Below, piece after piece: positions 13,480-55,877 of a DNA stretch of 64,000 nt. Origin of the DNA: Gamarada debralockiae (lineage: Eukaryota > Ascomycota > Leotiomycetes > Helotiales > Hyphodiscaceae); assembly GCA_002803225.1 (NCBI GenBank), contig NXFV01000347.1:1-64000 (forward strand). The letters are read 5' to 3'. Both the position numbers and the translations under genes were made by a program. The number at the start of each line of letters is the position of its first letter. The first letter of the stretch is position 1. The notes under the pieces are model-generated. The model saw only the letters and a program-made list of their open reading frames with translations, had not been told where the DNA came from and ran no database searches.

Positions 13480-15514
13480 CTAGAAGATCCACCTCAGCAC
13501 CGCCTCAATCCTCCCCCTCGCACTTCTCTCCCTCTCAGCCTCCTCCCGATCATCCTTACTAGCCTCATAAACATCAGTCTCCAGGTCCATACTCTCCACC
13601 CTCTCAATCCGCGTCCTCTTAAGCACCTTCCACCCCAAATACATAACAGCCATAACCGGCAATTCCAAATAATAGCTAAAGAAATCCACCACACTAAAAC
13701 TCGGACTGAAGCTGCTCCATCCCTGTACCAAAATAATCACCACATTCAAAACTACCGAAATCCAAGGTCCATATGGATATGTCCAATTTTTGAACGGCAG
13801 GAGGTGCGTTTTGCCTTGAATTTCCATCGCTTTCCGGAATCGCAGGGAAGTAATCCCGATTGCGAGCCATGCCAACTGGTTGGAGACCCCAACGAGGTTT
13901 TGAAGCCATGTCCAGAGTTGACCTGCGCCGATGAAGGACGCGCCGAAACAGAGCCCGCTGATGGCGCTTGTGGCTAGAACAGCTGTCCAGGGGACTTTAC
14001 TACGGTTTAGTTTCCCGAAGAATTTAGGGGCGTGACTATCTACGCTCAATGAATAAAGCAACCTCGTCCCTGCAAACAGCGCATGGTTCCCAGCACTAAT
14101 GACGCTCGTGATTATAACAGCATTGATGAACGACCCTGCGGCTTTCGCGCCAACCATCTGGAACACGAGCGTGAACGGAGACACGGAGGAATCTTTTGAG
14201 GAGAGGTTCGGATAATTGTAAGGGATGTTGAGACCGATCAGGAGGACGGAGAGGATGTAGAAGAGGAGGATACGCCAGAATACGTTTTTCACCACGCGGG
14301 GGAGGTTCTTGGTGGGATTCTTGGTCTCGCCGGCGGTGATGGCGATGGATTCTGTGCCGCCGTAGGCAAATGAGGCTGTCACGAAAACGGATGCGAAGCC
14401 CCCGATTCCATTGACGAAGGGTGCGTCGCCAATGTACCAGTTATGCGCTCCGAGGTAGTGGTGCGAGGTGTTGGCGCCGCAGTTGACGACGATGCCCAGG
14501 ATGATGAAAATCTTTGCCGCGAATGAGTAAACTAAAGAAGCAATGAGATAAAGCGGACATACTTACCGTGATAGTAATGACTTTTAAAAGACTAAGCCAA
14601 TACTCAACCTGCAGTATCTTGTTAACCCTTTGCCCAACCTGGCACAGTGGAGACGATACGTACTTCGCCATAAGCCCGCACGGTAATAATATTCGCCCCG
14701 ATCAGGAAAAACCAAAAGATTAAACTCAGCGCCCACCCAGGAAAACCCGTATCCCAATAGGCAAACACAAGTTGCAGCGCAGTCAAATCCGCAGCCGTAG
14801 AAACGGCATCGTTAAACCAGTAATTCCACGTCAGTGCAAAGCCCAACGCGTCATCGACGTAACGTCCGGCAAAGGTGCAGAAGCTGCCAGCTATCGGGAC
14901 GAAGGCGGCCATTTCTCCCAGCGCCAACATAGTGAGGAACACGATTGTCCCGACGATGATGTATGCGATGAGCACTGTTGATTTCAGAGTCAGTAACTGT
15001 TCAAAAATGGAAGAACACAGAGTCCCAAGACATGCTCTTACTGCCCGGAAATGTCTTTTAGGGAAGCCGAGAATAGGACTCATAATTATGCCTGGAATAG
15101 GAGGCTTGTAGGGCTGAGAATAACTTACTGGATGCTGGGCCGCCTGTTGCGAGGGATTTACCGGTTCCGAGGAAGAGGCCTGTCCCAATTGTGCCGCCGA
15201 TCGCAATCACTGTGGAAATACCAAACTCAGCCTTTGCTATTAGATACACAGAATCAAAAGCATTTCGAAGAGAGGTCCATGCAGAGTGGATTACGACCAC
15301 CCATGGATGGAAGAGACAATGGGTCACCGAAGAAATACTTACTTTGTACTTGGCGCGCAGAGAGCTTGCGCGCAAGTTTATCAGCTAAGACCGGGTGGAG
15401 GCCAGGGTAGTCGTCGGTGAGTGTGAGGTTGGGAGTTGAAGCGGATCGCTCGACGTCTTTATCGTGTGATTGATCGATCACGTGGACCGTAGGGTCCGAA
15501 GACTGGTCTGCCAT
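13480..15514 (-). CDS. Amino acid permease (APC superfamily, yeast amino acid transporter type)
   Basis: Minus strand. Exons 15514-15343, 15209-15129, 14974-14664, 14608-14567 and 14511-13480 give 545 aa. It is a plasma-membrane amino acid/proton symporter by family. The N-terminus is hydrophilic, then TM1 carries IAIGGTIGTGLFLGTGKSLA, the hallmark of the family. Then come LGEMAAFVPIAGSF, YWFNDAVSTAADLTALQLVF, VEYWLSLLKVITIT, the conserved FAYGGTESIAITAGETKNP and a dozen or so membrane segments, ending in a charged tail. All introns have standard ends and the exon total is an exact multiple of three. The 3' end of intron 4 (GGCAAAG) is the least certain. Substrate cannot be told. Upstream HGATAR motifs would suit nitrogen control. 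It is the only intact gene in its neighbourhood. Confidence 0.88.
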
Positions 15515-43876: not shown

Positions 43877-44873
43877 GTTTGCGACGCAGGAACGAGGCGC
43901 CTATGGCCTTTGTTACGAATCTGGGAGCGTTCTCGGTCCAGACCGGAATTGACTTCAATCTTACTGCATTTGCATCAATCGAGCATCCATCGTCAGCAAA
44001 TGAGCGACCTGGCCCGATCTCGTGGAATCCTTCGCAAAATTGCATCACGTGATTGGCATGGGCTTGGCAGGGGCACCTGATCGAATCACCCGACTCGCTC
44101 GTTATTTCCCGAATGATTGGCTGAGATCAGATGATCGACAGCTCAGCTCAGCTGATGGCTGAGACTCACAGTCACAGCCACACACAAACAATATTTTGCC
44201 TTTCCTTTTTTCGTCTGAAGTTTGAGGGTTTCGCGAATACTGTATCATATGGAGTCGCAGGAGGATCATGGACATCTAACTCGATGGATGAGAGAGATGA
44301 GCGCGTTACTACTGATACTACTTTAAAGTATCGATTTCACATTGAGAATGAGCATAGGTGTTGCTGCTAGATGGGGATGAATTGAAGAATGGAAAGATGG
44401 GGGTTTGTCGAGGATGGGAGAAGGGAGATTGTGTATGGTAGTATTGATTGAGGAGCAACTCAATTGAGAGAATAAAAAATTGAGGCCTGATGAGATTTGC
44501 AGTGAGATATCATTCATTACCTTCCAGGCAGTTGATCGGACTACATTCGTAAGAACTGAAACCCATTGCGTTGTGTCTCACTTGTTACCCTCCTCCAGGA
44601 GATTTCTTCAAACGAGGGTATGCGAATCCCCGATTTTGACTTGGGCCCGTCAATATATGGAGTACCCTTCCACAGTGAATTTCCTTTCTTCCAACTCTTT
44701 AGCTAACTGACCATCCATAATACCGTCGATATAAGACTCTCTAACAAGAATGCAGTAGTTTTCTATCTTTCTCAATAAACAGGGGTTCGCACGGCGAGAA
44801 GGATGCAAAGAAGATCGCGTCGTTAAGCCGCGGGCGGGCACAACCTTATATATCCCTTACCGGATATGATCAT
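43877..44873. other. Intergenic region after RCO1
   Basis: About 1 kb. No recognisable gene; a CTCAGCTCAGCTGATGGCTG reiteration lies near 44142-44161. The region should contain the 3' end of RCO1. Confidence 0.4.
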
Positions 44874-46110
44874 TTAGCGCTCTGTGATGTATATCTCAGC
44901 AGCAGAGAGAAGAGGCAGACAGTATCTAAATCCCCTCATAGTGTGATCAGCGCCGGTTATCCAGTCGTGAGACGGTTTTGCTCCCGCTGTAGAAACTTTG
45001 AGTCGTTGTTTGAATGAGTCAGGGGCTCTCCCTGTGCCCAATGTGTCCCCGAAGTCCCTGTCTGCGATAATAATTCTTAACAGAGCTTCCAATCTCTCGC
45101 TCCGAGACTGCGCTGCCTTTGATCCTGTCCACCATACACTGGGGGTAGGCAGTTGCTATATCGACCCGATCCCTAGGTATAATGGTTCCCAGCTCCAAGT
45201 CACGAGAAACTTTCCTTCCACTAAGCATTCTGATAGTGTCAAAACAGAGCCCATCAATGGTTAGAATGTCTACGTTCTCAGGAAAAGATAATCCGGCTGG
45301 AATACTTCCGGAGGCGCTGATAAATATCACGCTCGTGACTATTTTCTAACAGGGAAATCGTAAGCATAGATTCCAATTTGGGACCCGCGATGGGAGATTC
45401 TTCTCAATTCCGTGTCTCCTTGGTCGGCTCAGCATTATGCTGAGACTGTCGACACCATCTCCTCTGAATCAAAAGCTTCGTAACTTCCTTGTAGACCAAT
45501 CCAGTGGACCTGGCAGTCAGCCATATATCGATCTCCAGGCGGATCTTTGGCTAAGCTAAGTAATACGAAGATCCGGTCCCGAGGATCCGTAGTCTGCAGT
45601 CCCGCACTTCCATCTAGAACCATGCGCAGAGTGAGATGGTGCTTTTAGGTCCCAGCCCCCTCTGAGCATGAACATGGTTCTTTCCCTTTATCCCATACCA
45701 CAACAATGTGGACGCCGTCCTGGTTCCATGGAGGCTTCATCATGAGTATAATAAGCTTATGAAGGTGCACTCCAGCCAGATGCAGCTTTCCACATCAGAA
45801 ATGTATGTGTTTGGCAACACACCTCTCCTGAAGCACCCAGCAGCGATAAAAATAAGGTCGATCTCATGATTTGTTCTTGGGCGTTCCTTTCCTACAACTC
45901 CGCTTGATTGATGCATATGGCATCAATCCAGATCGTTCTTGCAAACTGCTCGTCATGTAGATGCCGAAGCGTATCTTCAAGGCTCTTGGTCACGTTGAAC
46001 GACATTCCCTCGATTTTTATCGGCACCGTCACCGCTGGATCGCCCATGTATACGAAAGGGTCTCGTAGTCGCCAGAGTTTTCTAGTGACACGACCTTGAG
46101 CCGGTAACAT
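44874..46110 (-). pseudogene. HET (heterokaryon incompatibility) domain gene remnant
   Basis: Minus strand. The first piece (46110-45892) holds the HET-domain signature: PIKIEGMSFNVTKSLEDTLR, RTIWIDAICINQAEL. After a gap without coding sense, a second piece (45623-45435) has LQTTDPRDRIFVLLSLAKDP, the block that follows the HET domain. More pieces lie at 45330-45019 (FPENVDILTIDGLCFDTIRM) and 45092-44874. Between them are frame changes and deletions: the segment usually found between the ICINQ and DPRD blocks is mostly missing. HET genes trigger self/non-self cell death in fungi (family knowledge). This copy is not functional. Confidence 0.75.
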
Positions 46111-46994
46111 ATCTCGTCGCTGGCTGTTCCTGGCTCGAGGATGACTAGACGGATCTCGCGCGTCAGTCCGAAAACGAGGCGGGGCTGTAGGTTAGGTTGA
46201 GTTCATTATGATTATTTTCAGGCTATGAAGGAAATTTTTTTTAAAAAAAAATTAAAAAATTAAAAAATTAATTTTTTTTTTTTTTAATTATTATTATATA
46301 TATCTGTTACAATAGAGGTTTGCTGCCGTTGTAAACTGTCTGTAGCGCGAAAGGAAAAGGTCAAACCGGAACTGACAGGCGTTTGGAGGTCGTTTCGCAT
46401 TAGTCGGAAGCGTAGGCTGAAGAATTATCTAGAATTGTAATGCATAGCAGACATCTTGACTTGAGGTAGAGAAGTGAGGCGAAACAACATGCCCAACTCG
46501 TCGAGATGCTGACTTATCAGATCAGGGTGAAATAGTCGACAAAATGATAGTCAGATAACGTACCAAGGACTGAATATCAGTAACGATACCTTCGTACAAG
46601 TACATGTAAATAGGAAGAACATGGATTCGGGATAATCACCCCCTCTCACCTGAGCACTGTGGAAATCCGTCTTAAATTGCACTTGCAGCTAACTCCATTC
46701 GCAAAGAGAGAAAGGTTATATGTGCAAAGAGCTTATATTCATTAAACAGCTAATCGCTCAAACCAGTCGGCTATCTACACAACCTTTTCCTATCTCAGCT
46801 ACCGCTTTTGCCATATCCATCCCTAACATATCCAGGTACTTCATGCTCGGGTATTATGCTCTTACTACTCAAACATAGGTAAAGCAATGGATGAACGCTA
46901 TGGCTTGAAAAATCCTCAAATCGAATTGTTCGCGTGATTGCGTGATTCAAATTGAATCACTGAAATGAGCTGAACGGCCAATATCCTGGCCTCG
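46111..46994. other. Spacer between the HET remnant and PDS5
   Basis: About 880 bp with the poly-A/T tract (46234-46304). No gene is recognised. Confidence 0.45.
46234..46304. repeat. A/T low-complexity tract, self-complementary
   Basis: The tract runs T8, A9, TTAAAAAATTAAAAAATTAA, T14, then AATTATTATTATATATAT. It is prone to slippage and to hairpin formation. It may be an old poly-A tail or simple sequence. Confidence 0.75.
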
Positions 46995-49900
46995 TCACTC
47001 CGACTCCTCCACATCGTAGATATCACTCGCCTTACTCTTCCCCTTCCCTTTGCCCTTTCCTTTCGCAGCCGGTCTGCTACCAATTGACGCCTTGGCCTTG
47101 ATCTTCGGCATAGCGGGAGATTTTGGCTTCGCCACAAGCGGACTCTTCGCCTTCTGTTTCGCAACCTTCGCCGCTTTCACAACCGGTGTGGTCTTCTTCG
47201 ATGAAGCTGTAGCTGTTCTCGATTTCCGACCGGTGGATCGCGGAGGTGTGGGCTCAACTTCTTCCTTTTCTTCCGCCTCGGGCGTATCTTCATCCATCGG
47301 CTCCGGTTCGGGCTCTGCTTCAGGCTCCGGCTCCTCTTCCTCGACAGGCTGAGGCGTGGCCAACTTTTCCTCCTCGGCATCTTCTTGTTCCTCACCTTCC
47401 TCTTCCTCACCCTCCTCATCCCCAGACTGTTCATCAGAATCTTCATCAACATATTTCCACTTCGCTACACCCTCCATCATCTCCTCTTCATCCTCATCAC
47501 TCTCACGATCCGCATAGCTCTTCCGCGCACTTGTGCCTGTGTAAATTTCGGAGTCAGCAATCGCTCAATAGAGGTGAAAGATTAGAATTAAGCGAGCTTT
47601 ACGGATTTTTCACTAACCTCTCGAGCTTCGTCTAGTAGCCGCCGACGAAGGGACGGGTGTGCTGAGGACTTGTTTCTGCCTCTTGGGCTTGGGTGTTTTC
47701 TTCTCCTTTGCTGCTCTCTCTTTCTTTACGCTCGACGGTCGAGAGGCTTTTAGCTTGGATTCGGATTTGATTTTCTTCGCGAAAGGCTGGCCGTCGGAGT
47801 CGTCTGGCTTGCGCTTCTTCTTTTGCTCGGCTTTCCGAACTACGCCGTTTAGTAGATCATCCATATCCTCCGGCAAGTATTGTTTCTCGGCGATTTCTTG
47901 AGCGACCTGATGGCTGGGCAATGCGGCAAACAGGCCAGTCGGCAATCCCACCTGTGGAAAAATTGGAGTTAGTGATCGCTCAAACAAGATGAAGGATTAG
48001 GGCTGAGCGGGGACTTATGAGTAGAATTCGTGAAAGAAATCGCTCAAACTAGATGAAAGATTGGACCTGAGCGGAATTACGTACCTTTGCAGGCCAAATC
48101 TGCATGCTCCATCCCTTCTTTTCCTCCCATTTGCGGATAACCGCTTGGGCGAGATCGCTCAAAACATACAATCTGTCAGAATCCTTAGCGCTAATACCAT
48201 CTCGAGCTTGCTTCACTCGCTCGGCAAATTTATATATTAGTCCAAGGTTTTCTTCGGATGCAACGCTGGTGACTGTGGATATGGAGTCAGCAATTGTTCA
48301 AAAGGGTTGAATGATTAGAGCTAATCGGATTTCATCAGTTTCCAACTTCAAATATATCCTCTTTGGGGTCGAAGTCTGGAGTAGAACTATCGAATCCAAA
48401 TTTACTCCAAAGAATTGAATGATTATTCGGAGAAATACATACTGTAGTAGAGAATATACTGGGCATGATCCTTCAACTCCACAGGGTCTGTGCTGTAGTC
48501 GGGGTGGTGAGCGAGGAGGGATAGCAGACGAGCAAAGATTGATTCCATAACATGGGATTTCTTCTCGGTAAAGGCCTTTGCGCGAGAGCGGATCCAGGTG
48601 ATGATGGAGTTCTTGAATTCGAGTTCGGGCTCAAAAGCAGTGAGGAAGATGATGGTATAGAAACGGTGTGATAGTTTGCCTTTGACAAGATACTTCTGGA
48701 GTTTCTCGACGAAGCCACGACGTACATTTGCCAGTCTGTCCTGTGCGACGAAGGCGAGGCGGTTGAATTCTGTGGGTGTGAGAATATCGTCGAAAGTCTT
48801 CTTGGTGCAGAGTTTCAACATTGACTGAGCTGCCAGAAGTCGTAAACGAGCCTTATGCGCCTTTGGTGTGTCGTTCTGTTTCGATATTTCTCCCTCTTTG
48901 AGTATCAATGCATTCAAGAGCTTGAAGACTGGCGCAGCGATTTGTTTTGCGGCGTCTGGGTCTTCGGTGCCTCGAAGACGATTCACAAGAACCTTGATTG
49001 CCCAAAGCTTCGCTTGACATTCATCGTCCAGTTCCGAGTCTGATTGCCAAGAAGAGTCCGTATCTTGTGCAGGAGTTCGTACTTTGAGGAGAACTTGGCG
49101 GGTGGTGATTTCTAGAATCTCGTCACTAATTTCATCCGCAAATTTCGCGTCCATTATTGACAGTTGGCTAATAGTTGCAAGCTTCGTCAAGAAATGATCC
49201 TCGCCATACTTCCAATCAGTGGTGGTCTTCTCCAATAGGTCCTTTGTATGCATCTCTTTCCGGTCCGAAGCGGCCATCAAGATTCTCACGGCATACTTAG
49301 CAGCCTTTGGCGGTGTACCGTACAGTGCGAAGTTGATCAGCGTCTGGACGAATTTCCGATCATGAGGAATATCTTGGGGACGATTCTTCGCAAATTCTGC
49401 GCAAGCTCTCAATGTCTCCACGCTGCCTGGGTCGTTGGCTTTCGTTTCAGAAGGGGTGTTCTCTTGTAGGGACTTGCAAAGCTCCTTGACGTTTGATGAA
49501 AATATCTTGGGCATTCTTTGGGATATTTCATGCATGACCTCATGGGCTGTCGCACCAAGACTGTTTTCGTCGCTTCTGGAGAATTGAAGGAGTCCTGGAA
49601 GATGGCTGCGATTGTACACAAGAGACGCGGAGCGGTAGATGATTGGTTCGAAGGTTTCGACAAGACCAGCTGGGGCTCCCGGTGCTGATTGCATACGCTT
49701 TGTGAATTCTTTGATCGCCTTGTGGACGGTCTTGAAGTCGCTATCAGTATCCGTTGCATATCGTAGCAGTTGGTAGCTTCTCCGATCATGCATTTTCGCA
49801 TACTTGTGCAATTCGGCACTCGTACGTAGAGGATCGGGAAAGAACTCGGTGAACCATTTGATAACAGCGTCAAGCTTTGCTTTGATCTCCTTGGCATTTT

Positions 49901-51956
49901 CATCCATCACCCCTCCATTGAACTCTTCGCAGCGTTTAAGGAAAGCGGTCAGAACACTAGCAAAGGTGGATTGACGAGCTTGCATTGCAAAGAATGCTTT
50001 CTTCGATTTTGCATCAAGAGATTTGACAAGGAGCAGAATGCGCTCAACACGAACTTTGTCTGCGTCGAATGGGCCTCCTCCGTTTGTCTGAGTTGCTTGA
50101 GATTCGCCATTAGTGGCCTTCGATCCTTTTGTCTTGGTTGGAGGATAGCTCAAAGGAATCAGTTGCTCAAATAAGACGTGGTCTAGCAGCACGTTGACTT
50201 CCGTGTCATTTGCATAGAAAGCATCACAGATTCTGGAAGGAATCGTACCCAGGGCAGAGATAACGGATTCGTTGCCATCTGCAATCTCGCCCACTGCAAC
50301 CCCCCACATTCTACCGAGTATCGTCATACCTTCAACCCGAACGGCATGCTTTCGATCTCGAGCTCTGTCCGCAAGAGTCGACAATACAGAGCCAGATGTG
50401 CTGACACCACCATTGGGTGCCAGAATTGTCATGATATCGCGAAAGCTGAAGTTTCCGATAGCCTTGACTGCTGCAATTCTGACCTTTTCATCCGCATCGT
50501 TCAACTTCTCTCCAAGTCCCTTAACCAGGGAGTTTCCGTCATCACGACTCAGACCAATGCCACCAGCGGAAGTCGCCAGAATTCGGCCAACAGCGGTGGT
50601 CCATGCTGCCCGGACAAACGCGGATTTATCGTTTTTTCTTCCGATGAAGCTATGGTACACACCAGGATGGGTCTGAGCAAATGATAGAGGTGAGATTGGC
50701 CTGGTGAGAACACTGTCTGAGACGGCAGAGGATGGGTAATCGTCTAATCTCATCGGTGGATAAGCCGCAGGGTCCATTGTAGGGGACGGAGGGGGTCCGG
50801 CAGCTCCAATACCAGAAACGACGTCGCCCAGTGTCTCCGTGGCTATTGATCGTAATTGCACATTCTCGGCGGACAACTGTACCTCCAATTGGGGAATTAC
50901 ATTCTGCAGGACAGATGGTGATGCTCGCCACAGTTCACGTAGCAGTGAATGAGCCTTTCTAAGTTCCTTCAAATCGTGTTCTGTTGGCCCTGATGGTGCA
51001 TCTCCATCTTCAGACTCCATTGCATCACTTGCTCTTCGATGTCCGTTGGACCTGGGAGGCTCAGCGCCACCAGAAACATTCATTATAACGTCGGCAAAAT
51101 ATTGGCTGATGTAACGGCCCATTGGCCCTTCACATGCATTGCAGATCGTTTTGGCCATGTTGTACGCTTCTGGAAACTCCTTTGGCAGTAGGGTAGACTG
51201 CTTGTCGTCGGACTGTGCGTCTCCATTCTTGGTCTTGCCACCGGTCGATGTACGCAAGAATTGGGCCATGATGATATCCACAACCTGGCTAGGAAGATTC
51301 TGATGTTCGTCCACCAGCGCCACCAGAATCTGGGTCATATGATATTCAACATCCTTCGCAATTTGCTCGCCTGTAGAATTCTTCGTAGAACCCGATATGA
51401 TATCGAAAAAGGAGGCGAATAGGTGTAGAGTCAAGGGATCAGAGTTAGGGATGTCCATAAGGAGGATAATGCTCTTGACCTCCGCGAGTGATACCAGGAC
51501 ATATTTGTGTTGCGTATTATATGCATTTGCGGGGTCTGCGAGGGCAGGGAGGATGGTAACGACGAAGAGCGTAAAAATGTCCTGCATTAGGTGTCAGCTT
51601 CATTCTCCCACGCATTGACGTGGCATTCAGACCTTTAGTTGTGAACCAGTAAAGGGCGCATCTGGCGCGCAAATCTTTAAGATGTCTACTAAGCAGCATG
51701 CTGTGAATGCGCGTACTCCTTTGTCTTTGTGGCCGAGGAGATGCTGCCCCGCAAGATCCTTTGCGACCGCCGTCAACGAGTCCTTGTCCGTTTCCTCTTG
51801 CTCCATTTCCCGCAACTCAGTCGACAGCGCATCCAGTCTCTTGAGGAGTTCCCCCGTAGGAATGGGCTTTCCTGCGCGCCACGATAGTGGTTGGTTGAAC
51901 GATAGACCCCTCAGCTGTGGCTCCTCCTGAACCACCGCACTGCGGCGGGGACCCAT
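46995..51956 (-). CDS. PDS5: Sister-chromatid cohesion protein Pds5
   Basis: Minus strand, exons 51956-51633, 51581-48443, 48272-48085, 47951-47618 and 47536-46995, 1508 aa, in phase throughout. Pds5 binds cohesin (Scc1/Rad21, Wapl, Eco1) and regulates its loading and release on chromosomes (family knowledge). The long exon 2 is a HEAT-repeat solenoid: conserved blocks include SLAEVKSIILLMDIPNSDPL, FVRAAWTTAVGRILATSAGG, DADEKVRIAAVKAIGNFSF and FNRLAFVAQDRLANVRRGFV. The C-terminus, in exons 4 and 5, is highly charged with KKKRK, EEEPEPEAEPEPEP and KGKGKGKGKSKAS, as usual for fungal Pds5. Introns 2-4 resemble each other and look like introner-type insertions. Confidence 0.92.
47537..48442 (-). 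repeat. Related hairpin-forming introns of PDS5 (introner-like)
   Basis: Three introns (48442-48273, 48084-47952, 47617-47537) share a unit. On the plus strand it reads roughly GGAGTCAGCAATCGCTCAAA, then AGATGAAAGATTAG, then AGCTGAGCGG. The units are at 48047-48074 and 47977-48010 (two tandem copies in the 133-nt intron), 47552-47600 (one copy), and 48284-48340 plus a more diverged one at 48411-48434 in the 170-nt intron. CGCTCA and TGAGCG flank each of the two best copies, so each unit can fold into a hairpin. I take these as members of one intron family. Confidence 0.6.
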
Positions 51957-53385
51957 CTTGCGCGCTTCAGAGCCGTGGATGTCGAGTTTTTCGACGCTGG
52001 ATATTGCGACTTTTTAATCGCTGACCTGGATTGAAAGATTGATTTGGTGGTGGGTTAGAAGTTGCGCGACTGTGGAGAAGTTCTGGCGCGTCACACAAGC
52101 GCCAAAAAGTCGCGTTGGCTCGAAGCGACACCGAACGGCCGACCTCACTCCATTCACTCAACATCAATCGTCCAGATAGATGTAGTGAGCGGTCTGGAAC
52201 TTGAGAGAAGCACTATGATTAGGAAAAAAATTGTTTTCCTTTTGATCTTTCGGAGCAGTTGATGATCCAAGGAGGACTTATTGGTACGAACAAGGGAAAG
52301 CCTGAGAGCCACATTTCATCAAGGATGAGTTGACTTATCCGTATTATTTGAGCAGCTCTCGAATCTTGTTGCAAGACTATGTTATATCAAATCGGATAAC
52401 AAATATGTTCCGTACCCAATTGCTCTCAAACCAGGGCCATAATACCCTCAAATCTTGAGGTGATTCAGTTATATGCATCCATTGGAAGCTACAACTGAGA
52501 GAGGGTAACAGGAGAAGCACGACCTCTCAGTTCAGTGCGCCTCCGGAAAGCTGGGGATGATACCCTTGTTCTGGCCTGGTTACCGGCAACTACCTCTTCA
52601 CTATGCTCAGCCCTTCATAGACTTCACAGTGCCCGTCTCTGGCGCCTGAACAAATCCTTCAGACGAATCCAGTGATTCTATTCCAGAGAGGCAATAATCA
52701 AGCTTGGAGTACCCTCACGGATAACTTATTCCATATTTCTCCAGCAAGCATTAATCGTGAAGGGCTGTAGCACCTATCCATCAACTCTACTCACGTGACA
52801 GCTAACTCATGCTTTCGTCCTCTCAAAATCTCCATATTGCAAGGGATCAGGTTGTTGAGTTCCACAAGTATTGAAATTGAAGCAAAGATCTCGTACTTGA
52901 AAATTCTACTGTTCTCTGATCGAAGTGAGGTATCAGCCCAGAGAAGTCTCAGAGTCTGAACGTTTGCCTCCTTTGACCCCGATATTCTGACTTTAGGCTC
53001 TTCTGTGAATCGTACCAAACTATTGGCAAATTGAATCTTGAATTTGTGATTTTACAAGATCGTCAAACTAGTCACCGCAAACTCCATCTTTGAGTGCCCG
53101 TTCTGAGAAATTCACTAGTTGTCGTCCCCACGCGTCTCAACCGGTGGTAAACAAAACCACGCCGACTTCACCTTTGTCAACTACAACACCTAAAATTTTC
53201 AACTTTACTACCATAGCATTCGTTTGGTTTTGAAGATATCTCGATACACTTGCAAGGACAACTTCTTCACGCTGAACGTCTTTCGATTATTTCGCGTCAT
53301 CTTTGTCGCCGAATATCAAAACTACCTTGACTCTCGCCCACAAAACAACCTCAACGACAACTCAGCTACGAATCCCGCCAGCAAG
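51957..53385. promoter_or_regulatory. Divergent region between PDS5 and the glycoprotein gene
   Basis: About 1.4 kb between two divergent start codons. No ORF with recognisable content. It should carry both promoters. No repeat or RNA gene is recognised. Confidence 0.45.
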
Positions 53386-55877
53386 ATGAAGTTATACTTG
53401 ATCGCTTCGTCTTTGACACTTGTGATCACTGCAGCAAGCCCTGCTCTTGGTTTGGCTGGACACGCTGATCGCGACGATAAATTGCTCCCTCCAAGTCAAC
53501 AATTCACCGCTGCTACATATTTAGCTGCCGTTGTCGAGGGTCGCGAGTATCCAGACAATGGTTACCCAGGGTATGGTGTCACGACAGCAGCTGTTGAGGA
53601 GTTCACGGTCACCACCGAATGCAGCGAATCCACGGTCACCGTTTCAGCTAGAGGTGTACTGAGCTCCGTCACCTCGATCATCGTCCCTGCTACTTATACC
53701 GGTATTACTTTGTCCGTCCGTCAATCTGCCAGCTCTGCCGAGGGTGTCCTTGCCACCCCTTTCAGCACCTCCACTCTTCTGTCCGTCTCAACACTCGTGA
53801 GTTTAAGCACGTCGATCCTTGAAACAACTATCCTCTCCACAATTGCCGTAGTGCCTATCTCGTAAGTACCTTTCTTATATTCGAACTAATGCGATGTCTT
53901 TATGCATTCAAGCTAACGTTTTTTTTAAAGGACTTTGAGCTTCTCCCCGCCGCCCGAATCAATCGTCCTAGGCTCAGGCAGCTCTGCAGTGGCTTCTTCG
54001 ACCCCTCTTAGCACATCACCCTTTATCGTAATATCCACAAGTCTCAGCACATCTACATTGCTTGCTAGCCCTGAGGTCCCAGTCTCGTCAAGTGCTGCTC
54101 AATCTACCGGCTCCTCCACAGCTGTTGCTAGTTTCTCCATCGTGCCAAGCTCTGAATCGTCTGCCCCAAGCAGCAGCGTCGGCTCTCCAACGGTGGCTTC
54201 AGAAACCTCTTTGTCAATCGCTGGCAGCACCTCAACGATTGCTTCTGGACCAAGTAGCTTGAGTTCCTCATCGGCTCTGTTATCGAGTGCTTCTCAGATC
54301 ACCATCAGCACGCTATCTTCATCTAGGTAAGTTACATTTTTGAATCGCTGAATTATAATGTGTGATTGAACTGACCATTCACAGTACCTCAACAGCTGTC
54401 TCATCAACTACTATTTCGAGTAGTTCCCAGTCCGCCCTTAGTAACTCTTCCTCGTCGAGGTATGTTCCCTCTTCTGAATTACTCAGATACAGTGAACAAT
54501 TGATCTTACCCTCTCTAGCCTTTCGATCGTTTCATCAACCACAGCTCCCGGCAGTTCACAGTCCGCACTTGGTACCGGATCTTCATCCAGGTATGCTCAA
54601 TCTTTTAAATCACTCAAAGTCAATAGCAGATTAAACTGACCCTTTCTAGCGTTCTGAATATCTCTACTGGTTCCCAATCCGCTGTCAGCTCGTCGTCTTT
54701 ATCCAGGTATGTGTATCGCTCAAACACGGTCAACGAATTGATCTAACACCTTGACAGTCCTCCAACTACTGCAGTGTCGGCATCATCATCATCCCTGGGC
54801 ACAAGCACGGAGACTTCGTTCACCACGGCCACGGTCTTCCCGACTACCTTCCTGTCGACCCTGACAACCAGCATCCCAGTCAGCCCACCCTCCCCCTCTG
54901 TACTTAGTGCCTTGAGCTCGACTACTGCTCTGGCAATCTCTACTCCCGTGTCCATCGCCAGCCAATCCTCCAGAACGCCTGTTGCGGTCGTCCCAAGCGC
55001 ATCATTTCTCAACAGCAGCACCACAGTCCTAACACTTGCGCTAACTGAGCAGTCCACACTCACCATTCCCCCATCTCTCTCAACTAAGACAACCACGGCA
55101 TGGGGCATTAGCGTCACCTATACTTTCACCCAACCAGGCCAGCCAATCTTCAGCGTCAGCACATCTACGACCACTCAAAAGGTCTCTTTGGTCGCCTCAT
55201 ACTCTGGCCCTGCAATCGCTACTCCAACTGTCCACGCTTATGGAACCCCTCCTGCTTCTGAGTGTACTTGCGCTGCGCGTGTCACAGTTACCGTCACTCA
55301 GACCTTGATTCAGCAAACCGAGACTGTAGTCCCATACCCACCTACCACCATCAATGGTGTCAGCACTGTTACCGCCAACAGCGGCTTTGAAGGCAAAGGA
55401 ACTGCCGCAACTGCAACAACCTCTTGCGAATCATCCTTCAGTTACCCCGGCTTCATCGGTGTAGCTTCTACTCTGTCCTCCTCTCGAGCTTTCGCCGCCG
55501 CCGGAATCACCGAATCGGAATCAACGACTTGCACTGCCGAATTGCTGACCGAGACCCTCTCCAATGCTCATACCCATTCCATTCCGACTTCATCAAGTCT
55601 GTACAGCCAGCCAGTGGTTCTTCCAACCTCGCTCATTGAGCAGGGCATGACTTTCATCAGCGGCTCTACTCTCTCAATCATTGCTCCGGCTTTGCCTTCC
55701 AACTCAACGGCTGTTGCTAACAAGAGTACTGGTTTGAGCACAGCTGTATATGGCAAGCCTTTCGCTCCTACTTCTATGCCGCAGCTGTTCACTGGTGGTG
55801 CGGAGGGAAGCGGTCAGGGTCATGATTTCAAGATGGCGTTCTTGGTTGGTCTTGGGGCGCTTTTCGTGCTTGTCTAA
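53386..55877 (+). CDS. Ser/Thr-rich secreted cell-surface glycoprotein, probable GPI anchor
   Basis: Exons 53386-53861, 53931-54326, 54385-54459, 54519-54590, 54650-54706 and 54758-55877 give 731 aa. The N-terminus (MKLYLIASSLTLVITAASPA) is a signal peptide. The body is almost entirely Ser, Thr, Ala, Val and Pro with few charges, a likely O-glycosylated stalk, and has a few Cys-containing patches (TTECSES, ECTCAARVTVTVTQT). The C-terminus ends in GQGHDFKMAFLVGLGALFVL, a hydrophobic tail after small residues, as in GPI-anchored fungal wall proteins. The GVTTAAVEEFTVTTECSEST region could be a small folded part. Exons 3-5 (75, 72, 57 nt) are in the same phase, each starts after AG and codes a STSxSSQSAxxSSSSR-like unit. 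Function is unknown (adhesin or wall protein by composition). Confidence 0.75.
54326..54757 (+). repeat. Tandem exon-intron modules within the glycoprotein gene
   Basis: Three short exons (75, 72, 57 nt) and the four introns around them (52-59 nt) look like copies of one module. Each exon holds the GGTTCCCAATCCGC / AGTTCCCAGTCCGCC core and ends in a run of TCx codons before AG|GTATG. Each intron holds a piece such as AATCACTCAAAG or ATCGCTCAAACAC followed by AATTGATCT-like sequence and a CTGACC or TTGAC branch. Confidence 0.6.

What the first reader, a model, noticed from the sequence alone, without database searches (positions are those of the whole stretch)
47537..48442. Three PDS5 introns belong to one hairpin-forming intron family with tandem copies (introner-like elements)
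Seen directly: introns at 48442-48273, 48084-47952 and 47617-47537 share a unit. On the plus strand it is about CAATCGCTCAA, then AGATGAAAGATTAG, then GCTGAGCGG, and each good copy can fold (CGCTCA with TGAGCG). The middle intron carries two tandem copies and the first at least two, one diverged. Unrelated introns of one gene should not look alike. Known: introner-like elements with strong secondary structure multiply introns in some Dothideomycetes. Inference: PDS5 has received recent intron gains, and tandem doubling lengthens introns without harming splicing.
Basis: partly seen in the sequence, partly recalled or inferred. Interest (0 to 1): 0.75.

Follow-up and report, generated by a model that had tools for sequence, protein, structure and literature searches.

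The report
Introner-like intron family in a Leotiomycete
Three introns of a fungal chromosome-cohesion gene are copies of one repeated intron that has spread through many genes of this fungus, and a short core of that intron is also scattered outside introns, for reasons unknown.

Summary
PDS5 introns 48442-48273, 48084-47952 and 47617-47537 belong to a genome-wide intron family: its 3' end occurs 144 times and its 5' start 111 times in the 54.3-Mb assembly, against 1 control hit each. In 18 full-length copies similarity starts at GT and stops at AG, so the repeat is the intron: an introner-like element (ILE). Twelve of 54 ILE introns hold two or more units. Among 53 relatives' apparently unspliced ORFs, 52 read through site 1 and 50 through site 2; the 96%-identical one stops exactly at site 2. 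That fits lineage-specific gain, though loss of intron 1 in that relative is not excluded. Corrections: the fungus is a Leotiomycete near Hyphodiscus; and the shared core, a 25-nt inverted repeat AATCGYTCA-N7-TGARCGATT, also lies outside introns (1,317 sites with up to 2 mismatches against 4 control). Its arms vary independently at the two positions counted genome-wide (102/41/5 and 102/47/6, as expected without pairing), so the dispersed core is probably kept as a sequence-read dyad, not as a hairpin. How the ILE moves was not shown; no target-site duplication was found.

The parts
48273..48442 (-). PDS5 intron 1, 170 nt, full-length ILE copy
   Evidence: GT-AG, open frame when spliced; 83% to consensus by a permissive aligner; site read through in 52 of 53 relatives' short non-NCBI ORFs
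47952..48084 (-). PDS5 intron 2, 133 nt, ILE with two core units
   Evidence: relative P0002 ends exactly at this site
47537..47617 (-). PDS5 intron 3, 81 nt, shortened ILE, donor GTTAGT
   Evidence: site read through without gap in 6 of 9 C-terminal relatives' ORFs
47559..47583 (-). 25-nt inverted-repeat core of intron 3
47974..47998 (-). second core unit of intron 2
48038..48062 (-). first core unit of intron 2
48292..48316 (-). core unit of intron 1
48400..48424 (-). diverged second unit of intron 1 (up to 5 substitutions)
46995..51593 (-). PDS5 coding region as far as followed; a further short ordinary-looking intron and the N-terminus lie upstream, read by eye only
14975..15128 (-). another ILE intron (154 nt) of this family, inside an amino-acid permease gene
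   Evidence: Pfam PF00324 match runs across the junction
52016..52040 (-). core-like 25-nt unit upstream of the PDS5 coding region
   Evidence: 2 mismatches

Best explanation
The three PDS5 introns are members of a multi-copy introner-like element family in a Leotiomycete fungus. The element is a complete spliceosomal intron of about 167 nt: donor GTAWGTAATTCTCGGAGCAAT, a self-complementary middle, a 25-nt inverted-repeat core, branch point RCTGAC and acceptor. It inserts precisely, leaves the flanking protein unchanged, is spliced out, and then decays by deletion, substitution and doubling of its core unit. Shown from sequence: the family, its boundaries, copy number, unit doubling, sites empty in relatives, no target-site duplication. 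Inferred: splicing in vivo (no RNA data), spread by an RNA copy such as reverse splicing, and gain of intron 1 after the split from the 96%-identical relative.
For: 144 and 111 copies of the two ends against 1 control hit each. Conservation begins at GT and ends at AG in 18 full-length copies. 53 of 61 3'-end hits lie in a frame-consistent GT-AG intron against 311 of 1,000 random positions. In 5 of 6 spliced neighbours tested (6 chosen of 53) a Pfam domain runs across the junction. Of 63 relatives with no NCBI source, 53 are shorter than 1,300 aa; 52 of these read through site 1 and 50 through site 2, the rest not reaching or ending there; P0002 ends at site 2 with a read-out VCNSQIALLT that fits the ILE start GTATGTAATTCTC (back-translation, inference). 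Tandem units in 12 of 54 introns. No direct repeat across the junctions beyond permuted pairs at usable counts.
Against: No RNA data. Intron 1 is only 83% to the consensus, old for a gain after a split at 96% protein identity; loss in P0002 is not excluded. Copies share no conserved fold: 6 pairs, -0.54 kcal/mol over 15 of the 18 full-length copies, mean z -0.85 over 55 introns. The frame test succeeds at 31% of random positions, and 8 of 61 hits fail it, one of them PDS5 intron 3 because of its GTTAGT donor. That the short ORFs are unspliced is inferred from their ends and from equal contig lengths, not from DNA.
Confidence: 0.85

Rival explanations
1. Local duplication: one PDS5 intron was copied to two other places of the same gene, without a genome-wide family.
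For: Three alike introns in one gene.
Against: 144 and 111 copies elsewhere in the assembly; copies in unrelated genes such as amino-acid permease, GH92, RNA-dependent RNA polymerase.
Confidence: 0.03
2. Old introns of common descent that were lost repeatedly in relatives, and look alike through conversion or shared splicing constraint.
For: Copies are diverged; intron loss does occur in this gene: the QKK intron at which most relatives' ORFs end is absent here.
Against: Would need losses of sites 1 and 2 in nearly every relative read (52 of 53, 50 of 53), and similarity runs the whole intron length including non-splicing parts.
Confidence: 0.07
3. The introns are DNA transposons (MITE-like) that carry splice sites and jump by a transposase.
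For: The consensus ends are partly complementary and the whole folds as one hairpin; the 25-nt core is a dyad that looks protein-read and is dispersed outside introns.
Against: No target-site duplication: 54 introns, k 3-6, shifts -4 to +4, near permuted values; largest excesses 14 vs 10.9 (s.d. 1.7) at k 4 shift -1 and 2 vs 0.4 (s.d. 0.5) at k 5 shift +4. Full-length copies outside genes were not looked for systematically.
Confidence: 0.2
4. The dispersed 25-nt core is a dyad read by a symmetric DNA-binding protein and has nothing to do with intron mobility; ILEs merely captured one.
For: With one exact arm used for finding, the partner arm is 77-90% constant except one position at 53%, the loop 31-62%; in a tandem array arms 0.92, loop 0.80, intervening 0.63; no covariation at positions 8 and 4. 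Compatible with the best explanation.
Against: No protein known. Part of the non-ILE sites are copies of each other (11 identical loop pairs against 4.0 expected). Sites also occur in open frames.
Confidence: 0.45

Closest known systems
Introner-like elements (ILEs) of Dothideomycetes (Collemare 2015, PMC4457414, parts 1-3 of 4 read; van der Burgt 2012 recalled and as cited there)
   Same: Whole spliceosomal introns present as families in unrelated genes, degenerating fast, at sites without introns elsewhere; stable structure of founders (recalled).
   Different: Host is a Leotiomycete; core unit doubled inside introns; the core also dispersed outside introns.
Internally symmetrical stwintrons and cropped sister introns of Hypoxylaceae (PMC8469720, abstract and section 3.5 read)
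   Same: Proliferated canonical introns with a long terminal inverted repeat, seamless insertion, no short tandem duplication.
   Different: No nested donor-splitting intron was seen here (not searched for); the repeated core here also lies outside introns.
Introners by DNA transposition (Gozashti 2022, PMC9860276, passages seen)
   Same: Intron families by insertion.
   Different: That paper reports TSDs or TIRs for most non-ascomycete families and none for ascomycete ones; here no TSD, the consensus ends are partly complementary.
Short palindromic repeats: bacterial REP and Rickettsia palindromic elements, mitochondrial double-hairpin elements (recalled; the last also a search listing)
   Same: Many short inverted repeats scattered between genes.
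   Different: Nuclear fungal genome; arms do not covary at two positions; loops mostly not shared.

Membership tests
Introner-like element | Many similar introns in unrelated genes | tested here: met
Introner-like element | Similarity limited to the intron, GT to AG | tested here: met
   18 copies aligned with exon flanks
Introner-like element | Lineage-specific position, empty in relatives | tested here: met
   PDS5 only; protein-level read-through, 52 of 53 at site 1 and 50 of 53 at site 2; site 3 in 6 of 9 C-terminal ORFs. Intron 2 appears shared with P0002
Introner-like element | Near-identical recent copies | tested here: not met
   best pair 84%, median 76% of 153 pairs by a permissive aligner; only 18 full-length copies of at least 111-144 were compared. 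Published families include degenerate ones (PMC4457414), so this is not taken as disqualifying
Introner-like element | Stable predicted secondary structure | tested here: inconclusive
   consensus -50.8 kcal/mol, z -4.2 on mononucleotide shuffles; single copies mean z -0.85, 9 of 55 below -2; no conserved fold
Introner-like element | Splicing in vivo | not testable with these tools
   no RNA data
DNA-transposon introner | Target-site duplication | tested here: not met
Hypoxylaceae-type stwintron | Nested intron splitting the donor | not tested
   not searched for
Structure-conserved hairpin element | Compensatory change between the arms | tested here: not met
   arm position 8: 102/41/5 against 101.4/42.2/4.4; position 4: 102/47/6 against 101.6/47.8/5.6 (expectations by hand). 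A biased local table pointed the other way

The most novel reading that the evidence does not exclude
The 25-nt dyad is the recognition site of a symmetric DNA-binding protein, perhaps an active or domesticated transposase, that also drives the spread of the introns carrying it. The sites in and between genes would then be the docking network of the system, and ascomycete introners, held to be RNA-borne, would have a DNA-level partner.
Probability: 0.1. Interest if true: 0.85.

Novelty: new variant of a known kind. Interest (0 to 1): 0.6.

Why it matters
[quoted passage not shown] Two searches of the held library (introner + Leotiomycetes, one paper on other species; intron gain + Helotiales, four unrelated by title) showed no report of introners in Leotiomycetes; subscription papers are not held. 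Here intron 1 of PDS5 is absent from a relative with 96% identical protein, so gain or loss can be settled with two genomes. The shared dyad outside introns gives a concrete sequence with which to look for what recognises these elements.

Tried and rejected
Covariation: a first table from my own loci showed none beyond expectation, but its mismatch limit works against finding any. A one-arm table suggested association at positions 8, 4 and 5 (non-ILE position 8, own G: partner G 11, C 7). It counts near-perfect palindromes on both strands and draws on selected loci. Exact genome-wide counts show independence at positions 8 and 4, and I take those. Position 5 was not counted genome-wide; position 6 shows no positive association in the loci.

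Frame consistency as proof of an intron was downgraded after 311 of 1,000 random positions passed; Pfam across the junction was used instead, on 6 of 53.

Random sampling: only five 10-kb contig starts were obtained; they hold 2 dyad hits with up to 4 mismatches against 17 in the window, so density is uneven and these stretches may be unrepresentative.

Rfam: no family at gathering threshold in window 46500-55500. Viral contigs scanned for the exact dyad as control: 2 stretches, not followed. Papers on palindromic elements: listings only, nothing matching recognised by title.

Flank similarity between dyad sites: 67 hits between different loci; the 20 shown are mostly 30-53 nt, which I read as other unmasked dyads or ILE pieces; L025 and L044 share 85 nt at 81%, and L008 and L040 70 nt at 77%.

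Full report
What was claimed and what is there. Three introns of a minus-strand gene share a unit. The repeat finder sees it without prompting, the gene is PDS5 (PF20168), the introns are 170, 133 and 81 nt, GT-AG, and their removal leaves an open frame. Intron 2 holds two units 64 nt apart, intron 1 one good and one diverged.

Which organism. The spliced PDS5 piece is closest by score to Hyphodiscus hymeniophilus (77% over the whole query); most other named hits in the 120 listed are Leotiomycetes, some Sordariomycetes and others further down. P0002, of metagenome-type sources and without a name, is 96% identical over 79%. Hyphodiscus is Leotiomycetes, Helotiales, Hyphodiscaceae. The window is contig C118 of a 54.3-Mb assembly in 1,112 contigs.

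A genome-wide intron family. The 25-nt core with its ILE-type loop gives 54 hits with up to 3 mismatches and 0 for the reversed control. Thirty loci, read by eye, showed two settings: many near the 3' end of what look like introns, followed by RCTGACTCCGAAA and TTTCACAG, others not. The 3'-end pattern has 144 hits against 1, the 5' pattern 111 against 1. Of 61 distinct 3'-end hits in the loci held, 53 lie in a frame-consistent GT-AG intron, and of the 8 failures one is PDS5 intron 3, whose donor GTTAGT fell below my threshold. Random positions reach 311 of 1,000. Stronger: 18 copies of 150-180 nt align with their exon flanks, and information is near zero in the flanks, rises at the GT and falls after the AG. 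Six spliced neighbours of the 53 were tested with Pfam. In five (amino-acid permease, peptidase M48, GH92 N-domain, RNA-dependent RNA polymerase, ankyrin) a domain match runs across the junction; in the sixth (Aquarius) the junction falls between two domains (junctions). So the repeat is the intron.

Structure and age. The 167-nt consensus folds at -50.8 kcal/mol as a long hairpin, z -4.2 against mononucleotide shuffles. Single copies average z -0.85, with 9 of 55 below -2; the PDS5 introns give -1.40, -2.13 and -1.48. RNAalifold on 15 of the 18 full-length copies finds 6 pairs and -0.54 kcal/mol. My reading: the founder was a strong hairpin and the copies have lost it. Full-length copies are 75-84% to the consensus and at most 84% to each other with a permissive aligner; BLAST gives 77% for the best other copy of one element. 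By this measure the family is not freshly active; only 18 copies were compared.

Gain at PDS5. Many relatives in the protein database seem to come from callers that do not splice: P0003 and P0122 share the longest-contig length 71,574 and are two separate ORFs, P0006 and P0123 likewise. An ORF of that kind that runs through one of our intron sites shows an empty site. Of 63 listed relatives without an NCBI source, 53 are shorter than 1,300 aa. Of these 53, 52 align without gap across site 1 and 50 across site 2. The exceptions are P0070, which ends before both (LLAGMCL), P0064, which ends nine residues before site 2 (KKGT), and P0002, which ends at site 2. P0002's last residues, VCNSQIALLT, fit a translation of GTATGTAATTCTC, the ILE start (inference). 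For site 3, 6 of 9 C-terminal ORFs (P0121, P0122, P0123, P0125, P0126, P0128) run through without gap, P0129 with one gap, and two do not cover it. So intron 2 seems to predate the split from P0002, and introns 1 and 3 are absent from each relative in which the site could be read cleanly. A loss of intron 1 in P0002 is not excluded, the more so as our copy is 17% from consensus. Most of the short ORFs end near query residue 1113, after QKK: an intron there that our species lacks.

Insertion. At 55 introns the last exon base is A in 33 and G in 14, the next exon base T in 28 and G in 18. Direct repeats of 3-6 nt between the two junctions stay near permuted pairs over 54 introns; the largest excesses are 14 against 10.9 (s.d. 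1.7) at k 4, shift -1, and 2 against 0.4 (s.d. 0.5) at k 5, shift +4. This agrees with what PMC9860276 says of ascomycete introners (passages) and PMC8469720 of Hypoxylaceae (abstract). I infer an RNA route; it was not shown.

Unit doubling. Twelve of 54 ILE introns hold two to four units; shuffled introns give 0.35 units per set.

The dyad outside introns. AATCGYTCA-N7-TGARCGATT occurs at 102 sites exactly and 1,317 with up to 2 mismatches (control 0 and 4). These counts include ILE cores that fit the pattern. Spacing 7 alone stands out. Found by one exact arm, with the site that brought in a locus removed where it lies at the centre (some duplicates and some such sites remain), 93 of 134 have a partner of 6/9 or better at spacing 7, against 0-9 at 18 other spacings. 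In the 108 with 5/9 or better the partner arm is 77-90% constant except one position at 53%, the loop 31-62%, the flanks near background with a weak T at -5 and A at +26 to +28. C783:400-2400 has 17 with up to 5 mismatches in 2 kb. In a tandem array of seven units the majority base holds 0.92 in arms, 0.80 in loop, 0.63 between; in another of eight 0.82, 0.73, 0.65 (units were cut at the dyad, which favours it). Sites with up to 3 mismatches lie less often in ORFs of 120 aa or more than base coverage predicts in three of four locus sets (0.33 against 0.61, 0.06 against 0.36, 0.25 against 0.52) and more often in one set of short loci (0.30 against 0.21).

Do the arms pair? Genome-wide, with all other arm positions exact, position 8 gives C-C/mixed/G-G 102/41/5 where independence predicts 101.4/42.2/4.4, and position 4 C-C/mixed/T-T 102/47/6 where it predicts 101.6/47.8/5.6 (expectations by hand). 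A stem under pairing selection would be short of mixed sites. A smaller, biased table had pointed the other way. So the arms behave as two copies of one word read separately, as in a dimer site. Non-ILE loops are shared more than chance (11 identical pairs against 4.0; 121 against 67.9 with 6 or more of 7), so part of the sites are copies; in ILE-like sites sharing is far stronger (33 against 1.7). What reads the dyad is unknown. The exact dyad lies on only 2 stretches of the 2.9 million viral contigs, so it is not a generic motif.

Verdict. The finding is real and its main reading is right: introner-like introns in PDS5. The host, the age and the role of the hairpin differ from what was written, and the shared dyad is the part that I could not match to a known family.

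Noticed in passing
window 54327-54757 (+): A Ser/Thr-rich, secreted-looking protein gene has at least three short introns (54327-54384, 54460-54518, 54707-54757), each holding a dyad with up to 3 mismatches, and by eye a fourth between them; exons between them look like near-repeats, as if an exon-plus-intron unit of about 125-133 nt had been duplicated in tandem.
   Followed up: partly
window 14975-15128 (-): A 154-nt ILE intron of the same family inside an amino-acid permease gene, with the Pfam domain running across the junction.
   Followed up: yes
window 47780-47830 (-): PDS5 here lacks the intron after QKK near which most relatives' short ORFs end: an apparent intron loss beside the gains.
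   Followed up: partly
L058 (C783:400-2400): 17 dyads with up to 5 mismatches in 2 kb; some lie in an open frame and would encode peptides such as NRSxxMND.
   Followed up: no
window about 44500-46200 (-): Downstream of PDS5, remnants that by eye resemble a broken heterokaryon-incompatibility (HET) gene; recalled resemblance, no search made.
   Followed up: no
L007 (C210:2423-5447): A gene that by eye resembles anaphase-promoting complex subunit 2 holds about a dozen dyads with up to 3 mismatches, in introns and possibly in coding sequence.
   Followed up: no
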